From contig CM049321.1 in assembly GCA_026874595.1 (NCBI GenBank), positions 21,484,979 through 21,548,978 on the forward strand: 64,000 bases of DNA. The letters are read 5' to 3'. The stretch's first letter is position 1. The number at the start of each line of letters is the position of its first letter. Below are positions 4,947 through 30,093 of this stretch, piece by piece. Source of the DNA: Sipunculus nudus. Taxonomy: Eukaryota; Annelida; Sipuncula; Golfingiida; Sipunculidae. The translations under genes and the position numbers were made by a program. Under the pieces are notes generated by a model that worked only from the letters and a program-made list of their open reading frames with translations, was not told where the DNA came from and did not search any database.

Positions 4947-6815
4947 CTATATAAAGCATTTCAAGCAGCACGTTCCAGATGATTCTTGATCAGCGACCCA
5001 CAAATAGGAGTGACTGTAAACAACGTTCACCGGACACTTCAGGCCATCATCTTTGGTCAACACATCTTGTATATGCTCACCATTCATGGTCAGTTCAACA
5101 ATTTTGCCATCCTCAGAATCTGCAACAAGAATATTTCCTTGGTCGTTTATAGTTGTAGCTCTTGGTTGTTTAATAGGGGAGCCATACTTACTGATAATTT
5201 GCAATTCTTTCCCCTCTGTGTCACAGAGAATCACAGCTTTGTGGGTTACAAATGTAGCTATGAATTCTGGCTGACGATCTCGTTTTACACTGGTAAGCTG
5301 TACATGTCTATCTTGATATGGAATTTTATGACATGTGGTCTTTCCGGACGATTCGTTGTAGCTGTGTAGTGTTCCATTTGGCCAAACTAATATGATGCAA
5401 TCATTACAGACACACAAATCACTGATATACCAAAATGGACGTTCATATAGAGGTATCCAGTCACATCTCAATGCCATGGTCAAATCTGATTGCGTCTCAG
5501 ATCTGAATAGCATAAAGGATCTCCTCAAAGTTTTAGATTGTTTGCAGGTGAAATAGAGGTTCTCACAAACATCTAGGGCAATATCACAGCCATATTCTGT
5601 CACGTGCTCAGTATCAAGGTCACGGGTTTCCATATTAGGAGTAAGCTCAGTGATACAGGTTTTCCCATGACGAACAAACAGCACCCTTCCGTCTCTGGTA
5701 GAGCGTAGTTTGCTTATGTTTTCTTTAAAGCGTTTACTAGCAACAAGGCTGGGTCTGGTTCTTAACATACGCATAACCTTCTGAGTGAATTTTAAGAATT
5801 CCTGCCTGAATTTCTCCTCAAAAGTTGGACTCAGGTTGATATCCATTACTTTCTTAGCCTCGTCTTCGAATTTACCGGATGTCTTTCTAATCTCATCCGT
5901 GGCTTCTTGGATGTCCCGTATCTCTTTGTTTTTACTTCTCAGAAGTTCCATGCCTCTGTTTCTTGATCGTTGGGTATTGTTAGCTGCAAGACGAAACGCT
6001 TTTATGTTTAAGGACCGCTCAAAGTGGAGTGCAGCCTCCTGTTCAAAAGCTTCCAAGCTCTGCTTGGCAGATTCAACATTTGCACGAATTCGTTCCATAT
6101 GTTTTCGTAGTTGATCTTTACAGGCTGAAAACCTAGATTCCATCTGATTTTGTTGATTCAACTTTATTCTGAGGTTTGATTTTTCTTGTGTCACTGCTGC
6201 CATATACACAGAGTATTCAACCAATTCCTCAGGATGACAGGCACCATCCAGAGTCAAACATACTTCACAAAGGCGACGTGCCGGTGCGCAGAGTAAACAA
6301 ACATACCACACAGGTTCGTTATGTTTTAAACAATATTCAAAAGTTTCTCTTTCCTCTTTAACAACAGAAAGTATTTCATGATTTTGAAACTTTGGTGCCT
6401 TTTTGTGTTTCTCCAGGCAATCTTTGCACATGTACCTATGGCATGTGGCGCATAAGCAGACCGCTTTCTGTTCAACATCATTCTTGTTGCAAAAGAAGCA
6501 ATAATGGTGTCGCATGTGGTCATCAAGAACCTCCTTGACCTCTTGAAGAAGGAAATTGTCCGGGAGATTGGCCAAGTTCCCTGACTTTACCACTGTCATG
6601 TACTTACATTTTGGGCACGTGATTTTCAGTCCCGAATAGCCATGTTGCACTGCTAAACCAGTGAGACACGCCAAGCAGAATGAATGCTTACATGTTAGTA
6701 GTTTGGGAGACTTTTTGATCATATCATCCCAACACACTTCACATTTCCTCAGGTCCATAGCAGGTGTCTCCCGGCAATTCGCCATTGTATCAAAATCAGG
6801 CAATTTGTATTCCAA
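4947..6815 (-). CDS. TRIM-like RING/B-box/coiled-coil E3 ligase with NHL-like C-terminus
   Basis: An uninterrupted 622-aa single-exon reading frame. Residues 25-70 form a C3HC4 RING finger (C25, C28, C42, H44, C47, C50, C67, C70), the domain that recruits E2 enzymes for ubiquitin transfer. Two B-box-like Cys/His clusters follow at about 106-146 and 162-194. A Lys/Glu-rich coiled-coil segment spans about 205-350. The C-terminal third includes NHL/beta-propeller-like pieces around 540-615 (a GNILVADSEDGKI block and a LWVAD block). This is the layout of the TRIM2/3/45/56/71-like proteins expanded in molluscs, many of them linked to immunity or development. The first ATG was chosen; a second in-frame ATG at codon 11 still precedes the RING. 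The gene ends with TAG. Substrate and exact orthology cannot be read from sequence. Confidence 0.9.
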   Translation of the reverse strand: MEYKLPDFDTMANCRETPAMDLRKCEVCWDDMIKKSPKLLTCKHSFCLACLTGLAVQHGYSGLKITCPKCKYMTVVKSGNLANLPDNFLLQEVKEVLDDHMRHHYCFFCNKNDVEQKAVCLCATCHRYMCKDCLEKHKKAPKFQNHEILSVVKEERETFEYCLKHNEPVWYVCLLCAPARRLCEVCLTLDGACHPEELVEYSVYMAAVTQEKSNLRIKLNQQNQMESRFSACKDQLRKHMERIRANVESAKQSLEAFEQEAALHFERSLNIKAFRLAANNTQRSRNRGMELLRSKNKEIRDIQEATDEIRKTSGKFEDEAKKVMDINLSPTFEEKFRQEFLKFTQKVMRMLRTRPSLVASKRFKENISKLRSTRDGRVLFVRHGKTCITELTPNMETRDLDTEHVTEYGCDIALDVCENLYFTCKQSKTLRRSFMLFRSETQSDLTMALRCDWIPLYERPFWYISDLCVCNDCIILVWPNGTLHSYNESSGKTTCHKIPYQDRHVQLTSVKRDRQPEFIATFVTHKAVILCDTEGKELQIISKYGSPIKQPRATTINDQGNILVADSEDGKIVELTMNGEHIQDVLTKDDGLKCPVNVVYSHSYLWVADQESSGTCCLKCFI

Positions 6816-11096: not shown

Positions 11097-14000
11097 TCAT
11101 AATTCGTCCTTCTCTGTTTCGGGATGTTCAGCCTCGACATCGTCCCACCAATTGTAGAGCCGCTCAACGTTATCCCAATCCACCACCTTCCACCAGTCTT
11201 CAATGTGATTGACCCGTTTGTTCTGATGTTTCAAATAGTAGGCGTGTTCCCAAACGTCAATCACCAGAATGGGGCGGAGCTTCAGTGTGATTGGCGAGTC
11301 TTGATTGACAGTTGCTACAATACTGAGCGGCTGGATTTCTGTATCTTTCTCATCATCAGGATTCCTCACTAGCCAAACGTAACCTGAACAGAAGTGTGTA
11401 ACAATCACAAATTCTAAAAGTTTATTAACAATTTTTGGATTTTTTTTATATACAGCTGAACCTCTTTTAATGTGCATCTCCATAATGTAGGCACCTCTAT
11501 AAAGTGGGCATTTTTTAAAGTTCTGTTTTTTTTCTCCCCCTTACTATTTATGTTCAGACCACATGACCTCCATATAGTGAGCAACTCTATAAAGTGAGCA
11601 AATGTGCCCACATTATAGAGGTGTCACTGTATATCTAATAAAATGTGTAATTTTAGATAATGGTTAATCTTACCATAACTAAAACTCCAGATGGCCCTGA
11701 ATCGAGCAAAAATTATGACACTGTGAATAATATCAAAACACAAACGGATTTTACCCAAAAAAAATCAAAACTGTTGATAAATTATGTCACTCACAATTAT
11801 GTCAGATAACACTGCTCATTTTAAAGCTGATTTTTTTCTTTCAAACTGTTTTATTGTACAAAAACATGCAAAAACTTAGTCACCATGTGATTTTCAATAG
11901 AGTAACCTATTTTTTTTATTTTAAAGGGTCAAGAACATTTTTTATGTATTCCAAAAAATTATAAATAAGTAGAATCACTTGTGAACAGGGAAAGAACCAA
12001 TAAGAGAAAATGAGGCTATGTGCAAAGTGACAAATTATATACAGTGAAACCTCTACAATGTGCCAACAGTTGGGCCAAACTTCCATTTTATAGAGGTGCC
12101 AACTATATGGAGGTCATGATTTCAACATAAGTAATAAGGTGGAGAAATATAAAGTGGCCGTAAAAGATTATCCACTCTATGGAGATACCCACTTTATGGA
12201 GATGCCCTATCTATGGAGGTGCCCACTATATAGAGGTGCCCACTATATAGAGGTGCCATTATATAGAGGTGCCCACTTTATGGAGGTGCCCACTAAGAGA
12301 GGTTCTACTGTACTTTATCCTGTATAAATCATAATTCTTCCCCAGAAACAGTTTGTTCATGATCAGCAACTTAATCTAGTCTAAGTTTGAAAGGCAATAA
12401 CATATTACACCCAGTGAGGGAGATGCGTCGACACCGTCAAGTCCAAGTGCAAGTCCAATTCCAGGCCACTCAAATCCAAGTCTTAGTCCATGAAGTTCAA
12501 CTGAAAGTTTACATCCTTTTAGTCTAAATCATTGTAAAGCCAAGTCCAAATATGAGACCAATGCAAACATTCATGTTAAAAGGATTTTATAATTGAAATT
12601 TGCGATTTTCTTGTATATTTTAAGCTTAGTTTGCACATGCTCTTTAGCTGAATGTTTTATTACATAAAGTATCCAAAGCAGAGCTAAAGCTTGGTATATA
12701 AAATTAATTTTAAATTTTTTTAGTAGCTGCACATGTATATAAGTTTTTATAGCATGTGACAGAATTTTTTTTACTGAGCTCTAGATGGACTCGGCCTGAT
12801 TTTTCAAGTCCTTAAATCCAATTCCAAGTACAAGTCCAAATCAATAACCTTTGAGTCCAAGTCTGAATTTGAGTCCATGAAAAAATGTTCTCCAGTCTGG
12901 ACTCTAATCCAAGTGCTGACTATAGGCCTACATCACAAACAACATCGTGACTTGATCACAGTAGAAATGCTCCTCCTGCCACAAGTTACTAGTCTTCACA
13001 GAAAATCAGTAGTTTTGTACTAAACATTTGTTTTTATTTACTCTTTAATGTATAAACAAACTGACCTGTACTATTCTACCGAATCTTGTGACAATGGTTG
13101 ATATAATTTCTTGTTTCATACATTGGAAAATTTAGAGAAGTTGTAAATCTTGTATCCAGAATTTGATTTATCCATTTACATGTATTTTTTTTATGAAATA
13201 TAATTCATCATTAGTTTTGACACCAATGAGAGGTTTTTATTCTAGGTTACGAAATAAAGCAAGAGTGAACTATGCTTGGTAGGAGATGGATTATAAATTT
13301 GCTGAACAAAGAAAATGTGTCCATTTTTTTCATTGAGTTATTCAAATTAGACTGACCTGAACCAAAGAGCTCTGAGGCCTGCTTGGTAAAGAGAGATTTA
13401 AAATGAGTGTAGGAGGAGAAAGATTTGGTGATGAGCTCCTCGACCTTTCCACTTGGCAGCCTGGGTTCCTCAATTGGATTTTTGCTCATACAGGCCCAGT
13501 AAAACAGATGGTTCACAAACCTGAAAAAAAAAATAAAACTTGTATATGGTTTGGTTTAGTTTGGTTATTTTAATGTGGGTAGTTGACAAAAGTCAGCAAC
13601 CTGTAACGATTGTACAACTTACTTCCAGCCGAGCCCACAGCATGTCATTATTACTGGTAACCTCCCTGGGTCCGTGCTCACAACAGTACCAAAACATAAA
13701 TTCATGACCCACTAGTGACGATAGTGTTACAATTTTAATATTTTAAAATTAATTTAAAAGTTTTATCAAACAAACCCCTTTTTGAAAAAAAAAATATTCC
13801 TCCTCCTATGATCAAGAAGGAAAAAAAACCACCAAACTTTTATTTTGTAACAAATGTTTAACTTAAAATTTAATACAAATAAAGTGTTTAGCCCTGTCAT
13901 ATTATCCTTGAAACCCCTCTTTGATTAAATTTGGTGTCCTGATTTGGAAAGAAGGTATGTTTATATATTTCCAAATGTCAAACTGCAGTTCCTAAGAAAA

Positions 14001-16516
14001 CCCAGAAACTGTACACTTCAAAACTTGTGATTGGTTACTGTTAGTGTAAATACTTAAAAAGATGTTGAGCTGGTATGATACTAGTCACACACACACAACT
14101 CAATAGACCAGGGCTTTCAGGAACGCGGAAGAACCAGTAAAGTCTTTGACCCTCAAAATCTAACACGGATTCTCAGATCTGAGAGTTCAACTGGACAAGT
14201 GAAAATTCTGGCTATTGGACTGATAGGAAAAAAGAAAAGTAAGCCTTTGGAGCAGTCACTGACCATTGTTGACTACCACAGAAACCAGTCAATTCTATAA
14301 ACACTGCTGAAAACTGAGCCTTAGATTTCACTCTGATCAAATAATCATACAATGACACAATATCTAATCATGTAATGGTATGAAAATGGCCAAACACCTT
14401 CCCCCCCCCCCTCCCCCTCCCCCCCCCCCCCCCCCCCCAAGTTACATACTTCACACACAGATTGGAACGCGCCATGTGTGCCACACATTTGAGATTCTGG
14501 GTCTCTTCATTTTTTCTTCCTTTTGAAAGCCCTGATAGACATTTATAAATTGGTCAGGTTAGTCTACTTAAGGTGGGATACAAGCCATATCAGGGAATAT
14601 ACTGCAAGAGTCGTCCATCCTTTTGCATTGGTATCAGTTTAAGATGAATAAGTAGTGCTCTGGCGCTGGTCAATGACACACTCTGTGTCAGCTACAATGT
14701 TGCTGGTATGATACTTGTGTATATAGAGTATGTATCAGTTAACATGTATGTGGTTTGTTAAATATTTGAACATTCATCAGATTTTGGTTGTATAACTAGT
14801 AATAATTAGGTAAAAGCCAACCCCTGACCTACCCTCCTCCATTGTTCTGGATTGACTTGCGTAGATTATCTGGTGCCATGTGCAATTTCTCTATTATTTC
14901 CAGGATGGACCTTTTGGCAAGATTGCTTTGTGGAGCCTATGATGGATGAAACAAAAGCACTAACATAAAATGATGGACAAAAGCACAAAAATAAAAAGAT
15001 GGAAAAACAAAACACAAAAAAATGATGGATAATACAAAAGTACAAAAATAAAATGTTCAACTGCTAATGATGCATAGAAACTCTGATTGCAGCCTTGCTT
15101 GATCAGCAGTTGAAAAAAAGGTTAATACTTGTGACTTGTCAACATTATCATTATATGTAAAATGGTAAATGTATTAATCTAATAATTACAGCTAATGTTA
15201 GCAGTATTGATTAAAAATAATGCAGACAAATTGAATTTTGAGAATAAATTAACAGGATGTGAAAACTTTATAATTCAGTATAAATAATTAAAGAGTACAA
15301 TAGATTGTACATATATATACACAGGCGCTTGAATCGCTATTTGTGTTGATCTTGGTTTAAATAGTGTTCAATTTACCTTAACGACAATACCCTACCGTTT
15401 AATGAGCTTTAAACCATGTTATATCGTTTGCCGGTACTTGTTTATATAATAGATACACAAGGCCGGCTTCCAAGTCTGCGGACGGGTGGGCGATAATACA
15501 AGAAATCAATTGAAATTCCCAAATATTTCAAAGATTTTCGAGGGAAGAAACTTACAGTGGTTAAATGGCCAGTTCCTCTTTCTATAAAAGCATCAACAAT
15601 TCCAAAACACACAGTGTACCACGTGTAATGAGCTCTTATTTGTAACTAGTCTGCATCCATTAAGCAGCTGTTACCCCAAACAAGGAAATTCCCATGTATC
15701 TTGGTCAGCAGTAAGGAATCCCCCCTGGAACCTAACACCTGATTGGTTGATAATGATGGAAATAGTAATCTGGGATAAATCTGTCTGTTCGTCGCTTAAT
15801 GGATACAGACTCGTCCGCAGACTTGGATGCCGGCCTTGTGTATCTATTATATAAACAAGTACCGGCAAACGATATAACATGGTTTAAAGCTCATTAAACG
15901 GTAGGAGATTGTTGTTTAGGTAAATTGAACACTATTTAAACCAAGATCAACACAAATAGCGATTCAAGCGCCTGTGATATATATATATACCTTTGAATCA
16001 GAAAACATTAATAAAAATAATAATATTATTATTATTGATATTATTAATGATCAGTATTTTTACTTATATAAATCTGAATTTTAAATATAAAATAATGAAT
16101 AAAATTATTATAATAAAATAATTTATAAAAATAATTAATAAATTATTCTTAATTATTCCTAAATGTATGGGAAGAGACGGCTATAACTGTATATGGCTGA
16201 TACCATGGACAAGCCCACTTGAAAGGAAACAGAACAGTAAAGGGGGCGTGGTAACCTGGTCTCTCCACTGCTTGAGGGCAGCATTCATTTTTTTAGTGTA
16301 TGCAGCGTGATGGCCTTCATGGTGGACACGCAGGGCAGCGGCGTCAACGTACGGCTCCAGGTCATCATGTCCGAACGGCAAAGACGGCAGGGTGTAATGT
16401 GTCAGACTCTTCCCTATGACGTAATACGGGGGCTTACTGACACTGTCAGCGAGCTGTAACAGTGCCAGAAACAACACGACAGCCAAAGCTGACACCCACT
16501 TCATGGGCGCCGCCAT
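11097..16516 (-). CDS. Fe/Mn superoxide dismutase with signal peptide and KDEL tail (4 exons)
   Basis: Coding exons on the minus strand are 16516-16256, 14936-14833, 13520-13357 and 11383-11097. They join with GT-AG introns in phases 0, 2 and 1 to give 271 aa. The enzyme family disproportionates superoxide to peroxide and oxygen. Residues 1-26 form a signal peptide: K6 followed by a long Leu/Val/Ala core and no Arg-rich mitochondrial presequence. The SOD alpha-hairpin domain follows (RVHHEGHHAAY), then the alpha/beta domain. Metal ligands by family alignment are H65, H126, D219 and H223 (the last two in DVWEHAYY). Q204 in NQDSP is the Mn-type active-site Gln. The protein ends in KDEL, the ER retrieval signal, so ER-lumen residence is predicted, unlike mitochondrial SOD2. 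The intron 1 donor (GTTACC) is non-canonical beyond GT. The start lies in a TISU context. Whether the metal is Mn or Fe is uncertain. Confidence 0.88.
11453..11629. mobile_element. pogo/Tigger-like MITE in SOD intron 3
   Basis: A short element of about 177 bp flanked by TA on both sides. It has inverted ends resembling CAG.TGAACCTCTTT and its complement (AGAGGTGTCACTG). Internal words such as CTCTATAAAGTG recur in both orientations. TA target duplication and CAGTGAAACCT-like ends are characteristic of pogo/Tigger MITEs. It lies just upstream of the last SOD exon, on the intron side. Confidence 0.6.
12042..12310. mobile_element. pogo-like MITE with internal minisatellite in SOD intron 3
   Basis: The left end is CAGTGAAACCTCTACAATG and the right end GAGAGGTTCTACTG, each flanked by TA. 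Between about 12170 and 12300 a 16-18-bp unit (ACTATATAGAGGTGCCC) is repeated roughly seven times with variation. The unit is derived from the terminal repeat itself, so the end sequence has been amplified internally. No coding potential. Confidence 0.65.
12430..12910. repeat. AAGTCCAA-rich dispersed repeat in SOD intron 3
   Basis: Both ends of this roughly 480-bp stretch are built of near-repeated 6-8-mers (CAAGTCC, GAGTCCAAGTC), with AT-rich sequence in the middle. The pattern looks like a non-coding dispersed element or degenerate minisatellite. It is non-coding and intronic. Confidence 0.4.
15320..15976. mobile_element. Foldback element in SOD intron 1
   Basis: Two arms of about 165 bp (15320-15485 and 15812-15976) are near-perfect inverted repeats. 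Each begins CACAGGCGCTTGAATCGC at the outer edge and ends near CCAAGTCTGCGGAC at the inner edge, with a spacer of about 325 bp. The element sits in an AT microsatellite (ATATATAC on the left, ATATATAT on the right). The arms differ at only a few positions, which suggests recent insertion or gene conversion. The spacer has no recognisable coding sequence. Confidence 0.8.
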
Positions 16517-18305: not shown

Positions 18306-19095
18306 TTATGAGCTGCCCCTCAAGTAATGCTCCGGGTCGCCCATGAACCTTTCGATGTTACTGATCACTTTGTTCAGCTTCTCCGGGTCTTTTCCCTTCA
18401 TCAAGTTGACGTCAGGGTAGAAATACGCCGACAGGTGGCGCTGCCTGAGGGCCTGAAGCAGCCTCGTTGTGAGATCCTCAAACCTGGTCCAGAGCATCTC
18501 ATTGGTCCATTCTTCTGCGTAGGGATGTTTTTCACATTCCCAAAACCACACGTTCTTAAGTACATATGACGTCAGCACATGTTTTGCTCCAGGACACCAG
18601 ATGTCGTGCGTAAGGCTTTTCATAATCCCGTGGCACTTTTTACGACATCCGCCATCTTTGTCGATTTCCTTTACTAATTCTTTCTCACATTCCGCGAAAC
18701 TCTCCAACCAATCGAAATCTTTCTTTGCCGCGTTATTTATCCCGACCACCTTGAATTTCTGTATTTTTTCGTGGGACGGCCACCTAGCGTTTGGTCTTGC
18801 ATGGCCATCCATGGCGAGGACAAAAGCTCATCCTGCTTTGAAAGACCGGCGCGAAATCCACGCTGATCATATGATGGCCGGGCGAGTTAAGGTATGTAGT
18901 CATTGCCGGTCCAGTCGGCTTTCGGGACACTTCCACTGTTCTTCTCATTTCCAGGCCTCGGACAGCTTGCTTGAGCAGCGCCTTAAAACTGTTTCTAACC
19001 AGGAGAGGTACCAAGTTGTCATCAACGATGAAATCGCCACAGCGGCGTCGAGGGGCTGGGGTACCGTACACTGGTGTATCCCGTTTCCGGTTCTA
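18306..19095 (-). pseudogene. Mab-21/cGAS-like (cGLR) fragment, frame-disrupted
   Basis: Two overlapping minus-strand frames together resemble the second half of a Mab-21-domain protein, the family that includes cGAS-like receptors. The upstream frame (19092-18784) carries GPAMTTYLN and then HMISVDFAP, which matches the strand bearing the third acidic catalytic residue. The downstream frame (18812-18306) carries the C-terminal helical domain: DFDWLESFAECEKELV, CRKKCHGIMKSL, LTSYVLKNVWFWECEKHP and SAYFYPDVNLM. Joining them needs a +1 shift near the TAG at 18784-18786. The upstream frame is closed by TAG at 19093-19095. No N-terminal catalytic GS..E part was found within several kb. A degenerate partial copy is most likely; a missed intron or sequencing error remains possible. 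Confidence 0.7.
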
Positions 19096-29075: not shown

Positions 29076-30093
29076 AGTGTATGCTTATGTTTCTTTCTCC
29101 GTTTTGTTATATTCTCTTGATAACAGATGTGTGCTGTATTGAAGAAGCCTTTCATTATGCATGAGCGTATTCACAGAAATAACGTGTATTTATGCATGCT
29201 ATATGTATTCAGCTTAACTATGTATTTCTCCTGTATCGTTTCTGTAAAAAAGAAATATCATACCTTGTTTTACACACACGATTGTAAATCAAATTTACGC
29301 CTAGGGAGCGCCTAGGCAACTGGTCTAAGATCCTTCAAAATGGATGGCCCGGAGGGCTTAAAACTTTTTCAGTCAGTGAGTCTTAGATATAGAACTGCAC
29401 ACCCGAGCGAAAAAAACACGAGGGTGGGGGTATATATCTCACCCACCTCTTTTTAGCAACAGGGGATGATCAATGTAATCGTTCCCCTGCTATTCAGAGG
29501 ATAAGTTATATATATTGGAAATAAAATATATTAAGAGTTAAAATGATAGACTTAAGTTCAATATATCCATTTCTAAGTTTAAATATTTTACATCTGAGCT
29601 GAGTCTCGTTTAGAATTAATATTTTCTAAAAACATAATTGGTCCGTTGGCCAATGGGGGTAAAGCTCCCCCCCCCCCCCCCCCCCGGACCAGACTTTTCG
29701 AAAATGGCCTGTTTCTTCAAACCGCGTCAAAGTACCAAATTTGCGGTTGTGACCAGAGGACTGTGACTCAGTTATTATGGCATATCCAGTAGGGAGTATA
29801 CCCAGATGATTGTGTTTATTAATATTCTGTACATTATATGGATTATCAGGTTTAGATATTAGCGTGAGAACTATGGTTAGAGAGCACATGTGTCTCGTTT
29901 GATGTTAATTTCAGCACAGTTTAATTCCACGTGAACCGTATCTGTTTGGCGGTTTCTATAGTGACGATTGTTTGCTGTGGATTTCAAGGGATGAGCATTT
30001 GTTTAGTTTGGTTTTCTTAGGGTTTTGTCTCTAGAGGTGTGTCCATATTAAAATTCATATAATTATTGGCAGTCGGCATTATAGGGAGTGGTG

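What the first reader, a model, noticed from the sequence alone, without database searches (positions are those of the whole stretch)
11097..16516. Predicted ER-retained Fe/Mn superoxide dismutase (signal peptide plus KDEL)
The four exons join in consistent phases to a 271-aa protein with all four metal ligands (H65, H126, D219, H223). It has a hydrophobic signal peptide instead of a mitochondrial presequence and ends exactly in KDEL. Fe/Mn SODs in animals are normally mitochondrial or, in some crustaceans, cytosolic; an ER-lumen form is not one I recognise. It could control superoxide during oxidative folding.
Basis: partly seen in the sequence, partly recalled or inferred. Interest (0 to 1): 0.75.

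Follow-up and report, generated by a model that had tools for sequence, protein, structure and literature searches.

The report
ER-addressed superoxide dismutase in an animal
This animal genome holds a bacterial-looking Fe/Mn superoxide dismutase gene with a secretion-type signal at one end and the ER-retrieval tag KDEL at the other, which suggests an antioxidant enzyme stationed in the endoplasmic reticulum instead of mitochondria; the enzyme family is well known, and the location is predicted but not tested.

Summary
Four exons on the minus strand, with GT-AG introns, join in phase to a 271-residue Fe/Mn SOD with all four metal ligands, a strongly hydrophobic N-terminus and a C-terminal KDEL. 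The hydrophobic segment shares an exon with ligand H65, and KDEL shares one with D219 and H223, so exon swapping cannot remove an address and keep all ligands. It is not a recent copy of the host's mitochondrial-type SOD2, which has other intron positions and is 33.5% identical. Its signature and best database matches are of the prokaryotic SodFM1 type, but the tree leaves its origin open (p-AU 0.226). Its V217-I218 pair predicts Fe-leaning or cambialistic metal use. A probable relative is printed: scallop Mn-SOD8, filed as cytosolic (PMC6949909); its ligand spacing and tail length match ours and none of the rows compared. If that is right, the gene family is known and its ER address was missed. 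Signal cleavage, ER retention, activity and role are inferred.

The parts
16256..16516 (-). Exon 1: start codon, signal segment, ligand H65, first part of the alpha-hairpin domain
   Evidence: ATG at 16516-16514, donor CAG/GTTACC
16436..16516 (-). Predicted signal peptide, residues 1-27 (MAAPMKWVSALAVVLFLALLQLADSVS); the cleavage site is a guess by the -3,-1 rule (recalled)
   Evidence: hydropathy; no trained predictor was run
14833..14936 (-). Exon 2
   Evidence: acceptor TAG, donor GTAGGT
13357..13520 (-). Exon 3: ligand H126 (codon 13510-13508), single cysteine C132
   Evidence: acceptor CAG, donor GTCAGT
11097..11383 (-). Exon 4: Q204, V217-I218, ligands D219 (codon 11258-11256) and H223 (codon 11246-11244), acidic tail, stop
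   Evidence: acceptor CAG
11100..11111 (-). KDEL codons, directly before the stop TGA at 11099-11097

Best explanation
A host-encoded Fe/Mn superoxide dismutase with SodFM1-type signature that enters the secretory pathway by a cleaved signal peptide and is kept in the ER lumen by KDEL-receptor retrieval. There it would turn luminal superoxide (most plausibly from NADPH oxidases that face the lumen) into H2O2, which ER peroxidases such as PRDX4 or GPx7/8 could use. Shown: gene structure, intact ligands and active-site residues, the two address sequences, and a KDEL-receptor family gene in the same genome. Inferred: splicing, cleavage, retention, activity, metal (Fe-leaning or cambialistic, from V217-I218) and role.
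For: In-phase four-exon gene with both Pfam halves. Hydrophobic N-terminus and KDEL end, each rare by chance, and each in one exon with metal ligands. In an alignment with 94 other rows the ligand columns, Y73, H69, W221 and E222 are conserved and ours agrees; Q204 agrees with 89 of 94. No N-glycosylation sequon and one cysteine, which is compatible with the lumen but not proof. PF00810 (KDEL receptor) matches on contig C2. The ligand-spacing and tail match to scallop Mn-SOD8, which is transcribed, suggests a conserved gene.
Against: No transcript, no SignalP/TargetP run, no localisation and no assay. No ERSE or UPRE motif near the gene. Second-shell departures F123 (H in 68 of 94 rows) and Y178 (W in 92 of 94) could lower activity. 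The end branch in the tree is long, 1.59 against a median of 0.31. The scallop authors' predictors gave cytosol for SOD8 (two of three tools, and chloroplast by the third). Partners PRDX4, GPx7/8 and NOX were not searched for in the genome.
Confidence: 0.68

Rival explanations
1. A secretory-pathway SOD whose main site is not the ER: it escapes retrieval or is stored in granules and acts as an extracellular Fe/Mn SOD.
For: The signal segment alone sends a protein out; some KDEL proteins leak (recalled). Scallop SOD8 transcripts are highest in hepatopancreas and ganglia.
Against: The exact KDEL end after an acidic tail and a KDEL-receptor gene in the genome.
Confidence: 0.13
2. An ER-resident protein of the SOD fold with little or no SOD activity (a pseudoenzyme, metal buffer or chaperone).
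For: Long end branch; F123 and Y178 in the second shell.
Against: All four ligands and the conserved Y73, H69, W221, E222 are intact. One archaeal homologue (L018) shares Y at 178 and the V-I pair.
Confidence: 0.1
3. A cytosolic or mitochondrial Mn-SOD, as scallop SOD8 was filed; the hydrophobic N-terminus or the KDEL end is a gene-model error or is not used.
For: Published tools put scallop SOD8 in the cytosol. Splicing here is untested and join 1 is not pinned by a motif.
Against: Each address shares an exon with ligands; the ATG has a good context; the next in-frame methionines are M77, M107 and M133, inside the SOD domain. A host SOD2 already covers the mitochondrial role.
Confidence: 0.09

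Closest known systems
Chlamys farreri Mn-SOD8, MK374372 (PMC6949909; passages and sections 5, 6, 8, 21)
   Same: Second Fe/Mn SOD beside a mitochondrial one; 262 aa against 271; ligand spacings 64 and 89 against 61 and 93; 44 against 48 residues after the last ligand; the printed motif allows GHHAAYVKK[LM]N, close to our GHHAAYTKKMN.
   Different: Described as cytosolic; pI 4.94 against 6.0 for ours. Its full sequence was not seen, so signal peptide and KDEL there are unknown.
Prokaryotic SodFM1 MnSODs (scheme of PMC10172142, passages)
   Same: C-terminal Gln Q204, G at the N-terminal Gln place, ligand set; best PDB score 174 bits with 1gv3; 34-44% identity to the 80 best prokaryotic loci.
   Different: Introns, signal segment, KDEL tail, inserts in the hairpin and between H126 and D219, V217-I218.
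Mitochondrial SOD2 (SodFM5), including the host's own copy on C6
   Same: Family, ligands and C-terminal Gln.
   Different: 33.5% identity, other intron positions, hairpin gap absent in ours; 117 bits with 1n0j against 174 with 1gv3.
Fe-active Bacillus SodA2 with the V-I pair (PMC13008324, passages)
   Same: V at D-2 and I at D-1.
   Different: A prokaryotic enzyme without these addresses (recalled); ours is unmeasured.
Crustacean cytosolic MnSOD (recalled; mentioned in PMC6949909 section 6)
   Same: An extra-mitochondrial animal Fe/Mn SOD.
   Different: Described as cytosolic; I saw no sequence and could not compare.

Membership tests
Fe/Mn superoxide dismutase | Sod_Fe_N and Sod_Fe_C domains with H, H, D, H ligands | tested here: met
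Fe/Mn superoxide dismutase | SOD activity with Mn or Fe | not testable with these tools
   needs the protein
SodFM1 | C-terminal water-coordinating Gln and no N-terminal Gln | tested here: met
   Q204, G122; SodFM5 shares this feature
SodFM1 | Placed with SodFM1 and apart from SodFM5 in a tree | tested here: inconclusive
   groups with L052, L018, L085 at 99/85 on a long branch; union with SOD2 not rejected, p-AU 0.226
SodFM1 | Homodimer | not testable with these tools
   no fold or protein
Mitochondrial SOD2 (SodFM5) | Mitochondrial presequence and SOD2-like hairpin | tested here: not met
   hydrophobic signal-like N-terminus by hydropathy, no hairpin gap; MitoFates or TargetP not run
Soluble ER-resident proteins | Cleavable N-terminal signal peptide | tested here: inconclusive
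   hydropathy only, 46 of 100,000 shuffles; no trained predictor
Soluble ER-resident proteins | C-terminal KDEL or variant | tested here: met
   EKDEL directly before the stop
Soluble ER-resident proteins | Steady-state location in the ER | not testable with these tools
   needs cells
Orthologue of scallop Mn-SOD8 | Shared ligand spacing, tail length and motif | tested here: inconclusive
   SOD8 and ours alone have both spacings at least 60 and 88 (0 of 94 other rows); 79 of 80 prokaryotic tails are 43 or shorter; motif is a blend
Orthologue of scallop Mn-SOD8 | Reciprocal best match of full sequences | not tested
   the scallop sequence is in no collection offered here

The most novel reading that the evidence does not exclude
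A conserved molluscan, perhaps wider, lineage of ER-luminal SodFM1-type enzymes, taken from prokaryotes independently of the mitochondrial SOD and filed until now as 'cytosolic Mn-SOD', gives some animals a dedicated ER superoxide dismutase, tuned toward Fe or mixed Fe/Mn use, that turns luminal superoxide into H2O2 for oxidative folding or redox signalling.
Probability: 0.33. Interest if true: 0.75.

Novelty: new variant of a known kind. Interest (0 to 1): 0.58.

Why it matters
As far as I recall, mammals have no SOD built for the ER; a paper that I saw in passages speaks of SOD1 reaching the ER lumen and of engineered ER-targeted SOD1 (PMC6819749). A natural ER-addressed Fe/Mn SOD would show that some animals do manage superoxide in that compartment, would make the question of luminal superoxide testable by gene removal, and would correct the 'cytosolic Mn-SOD' label in bivalves if scallop SOD8 is its orthologue. 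The V217-I218 pair also gives a direct test of metal use in a compartment with its own metal supply.

Tried and rejected
Recent duplicate of the host SOD2: rejected; other intron positions and 33.5% identity. Gift of the bacteria whose contigs lie in the assembly: their SOD has the N-terminal Gln pattern (L001) and is about 37-40% identical. Phage or plasmid source: best hits under 42%, no nearer than chromosomal genes. KDEL-like ends in relatives: 0 of 164; viral matches that ran to query residue 271 belong to longer proteins without such ends. UPR elements: no ERSE in the window; one UPRE match at 1523-1530, far from the gene, with 1.49 expected by chance; two ERSE-II matches with one mismatch, at 29644 and 31225, with 2.31 expected. 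Naming the host by mitochondrial COX1 failed: C123 proved to be a bacterial contig. Big defensin: no match, but no control rang either, so no conclusion. Presequence exon of host SOD2: not found in the stretch read. Identity alone does not show a prokaryotic source: the host SOD2 is closer to L009, L010 and L021 (47-50%) than our protein is (42-45%).

Of 200 loci held, 191 were searched and all matched; 145 remained after removing duplicates, and of the viral ones four were kept, leaving 93 loci plus the two host proteins.

Full report
What is there. On the minus strand four exons (16516-16256, 14936-14833, 13520-13357, 11383-11097) join with GT-AG introns and consistent phases into an 816-nt frame for 271 residues. 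Pfam finds both halves of the Fe/Mn SOD family, Sod_Fe_N at 74.8 and Sod_Fe_C at 117.3 bits, well over their cut-offs. The protein begins MAAPMKWVSALAVVLFLALLQLADSVS and ends EAEHPETEKDEL. The hydrophobic peak was reached by 46 of 100,000 shuffles, and a KDEL end has a chance of about 3.5e-5 by composition. The start codon has A at -3 and G at +4.

Why alternative exons are an unlikely escape. The signal segment is in the same exon as ligand H65, and KDEL is in the same exon as D219 and H223. A transcript without either address would lose ligands too, unless a splice site inside the exon were used. The next in-frame methionines after M5 are M77, M107 and M133, inside the SOD domain. Join 1 is the only one not pinned by a conserved motif.

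How many such genes. A whole-genome search with the protein listed 17 matches: four exon matches of this gene, two on contig C6, and 11 on bacterial contigs. Searches with PF00081 and PF02777 (14 matches each) show the same places. The tool says that counts are lower bounds. The C6 gene is an ordinary mitochondrial-type SOD2; its exons 2-5 were joined, and it scores 346 bits with PDB chain 1n0j (human SOD2 is recalled). Its three introns between exons 2 and 5 are all phase 1, read by eye, and sit elsewhere than those of the window gene. Its first exon was not found. The two host proteins are 33.5% identical.

What kind of SOD. Of 156 matching PDB sequences 60 were shown; the best is 1gv3 at 174 bits (an Anabaena enzyme, organism recalled), and the first entry labelled mitochondrial is 45th, at 119 bits; 1n0j is at 117. 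By the scheme of PMC10172142 (passages), SodFM1 and SodFM5 have a C-terminal Gln and SodFM2 an N-terminal one; ours has Q204, and G at the N-terminal place. It lacks the hairpin gap of SOD2. The tree of 95 rows puts it with L052 (Vogelbacteria, 100/85) and then two Pacearchaeota (99/85), but on a branch of 1.59 against a median of 0.31. Holding it together with SOD2 costs 27.7 log-likelihood units and is not rejected (p-AU 0.226). The host SOD2 is itself nearer to three of the bacterial rows (47-50%) than our protein is (42-45%), so ours is simply more divergent. I therefore say SodFM1-like, origin open; transfer from prokaryotes is possible and not shown.

Metal. The residues before D219 are V217 and I218. 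Among 94 compared rows the D-2 residue is G in 78, A in 7, T in 5, V in 2 and M in 2. PMC13008324 (passages) reports that the V-I pair belongs to an Fe-dependent Bacillus SodA2, and that putting it into Mn-SodFM1s raised the Fe/Mn activity ratio to 1.49, 1.01 and 0.99, and to 0.74 in a fourth. PMC10172142 (passages) warns that changes at this place do not always alter metal use. I predict cambialism or Fe preference. Against ordinary activity: F123, where 68 of 94 rows have H, and Y178, where 92 of 94 have W.

A probable printed relative. Four oysters were reported with one Fe/Mn SOD each (PMC9118643, passages and section 5). Zhikong scallop has two: mitochondrial Mn-SOD7 and a 262-residue Mn-SOD8 that the authors call cytosolic (PMC6949909, passages and sections 5, 6, 8, 21). 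SOD8's ligand numbers (H61, H125, D214, H218) give spacings of 64 and 89, with 44 residues after the last ligand; ours are 61, 93 and 48. Of the 94 other rows in my alignment none has spacings of at least 60 and 88 together, and 79 of 80 prokaryotic tails are 43 or shorter. Motif 5 of that paper allows GHHAAYVKK[LM]N; the pattern GHHxxYxKK is in our protein and in no other row. The motif blends sequences, so this is suggestive only. The localisation tools in the passage that I saw are CELLO, Euk-mPLoc, WoLF PSORT, cNLS Mapper and MitoFates, with no secretory signal-peptide predictor among them; two of the three general tools gave cytosol and one chloroplast for SOD8. SOD8 is widely expressed, more in hepatopancreas and ganglia, and comes on in umbo larvae, so the gene is transcribed there.

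Is an ER SOD in print? Searches for KDEL or ER-resident SODs (6, 1, 6 and 2 papers) and for extracellular MnSOD with a signal peptide (none) listed no natural ER-retained SOD by title or start of abstract. I opened two of these papers, in passages: PMC6819749 uses engineered ER-targeted SOD1 and says that SOD1 can be in the ER lumen; PMC3141003 speaks of ER retention of calumenin, not of a SOD. The others were not opened, and the library holds open-access papers only.

How it most likely works. Import by the signal peptide, retrieval by the KDEL receptor (PF00810 matches on contig C2), dismutation of luminal superoxide to H2O2, and use of that H2O2 by ER peroxidases. The last two steps are inference, and the peroxidases and oxidases were not searched for. 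No unfolded-protein-response motif lies near the gene, so I do not claim stress regulation.

Limits. No animal proteomes, transcripts or trained targeting predictors were available.

Noticed in passing
15320-15487 and 15809-15976: Inverted repeat in intron 1: 168-nt arms, 96% complementary, 321 nt apart, perhaps a small DNA transposon.
   Followed up: partly
about 12060-12300: Short repeated phrase (like tatagaggtgcccac) in intron 3, seen by eye; not run through a repeat finder.
   Followed up: no
18309-18827 (-) and 4950-6815 (-): Neighbouring open frames: a Mab-21_C domain (75 bits, cut-off 24.1) and a RING plus NHL protein of TRIM type.
   Followed up: partly
G000 contigs C61, C62, C66, C72, C74, C77, C83, C89, C90: Eleven equal-scoring copies of a bacterial Fe/Mn SOD on nine contigs; pairs on C61 and C72 lie 2.01 and 2.09 Mb apart, as if a circular bacterial genome of about 2 Mb, perhaps a symbiont, had been assembled several times. 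Which bacterium was not determined.
   Followed up: partly
G000 contig C123 (L169, L170): A 112-kb contig whose first 20 kb read as a bacterium with cytochrome oxidase genes, a second bacterial source in the assembly by its composition.
   Followed up: partly
many of L093-L168: Many viral contigs encode proteins of about 490-521 residues with an Fe/Mn SOD domain after a short leader and a long C-terminal part; others are of 200-362 residues.
   Followed up: no
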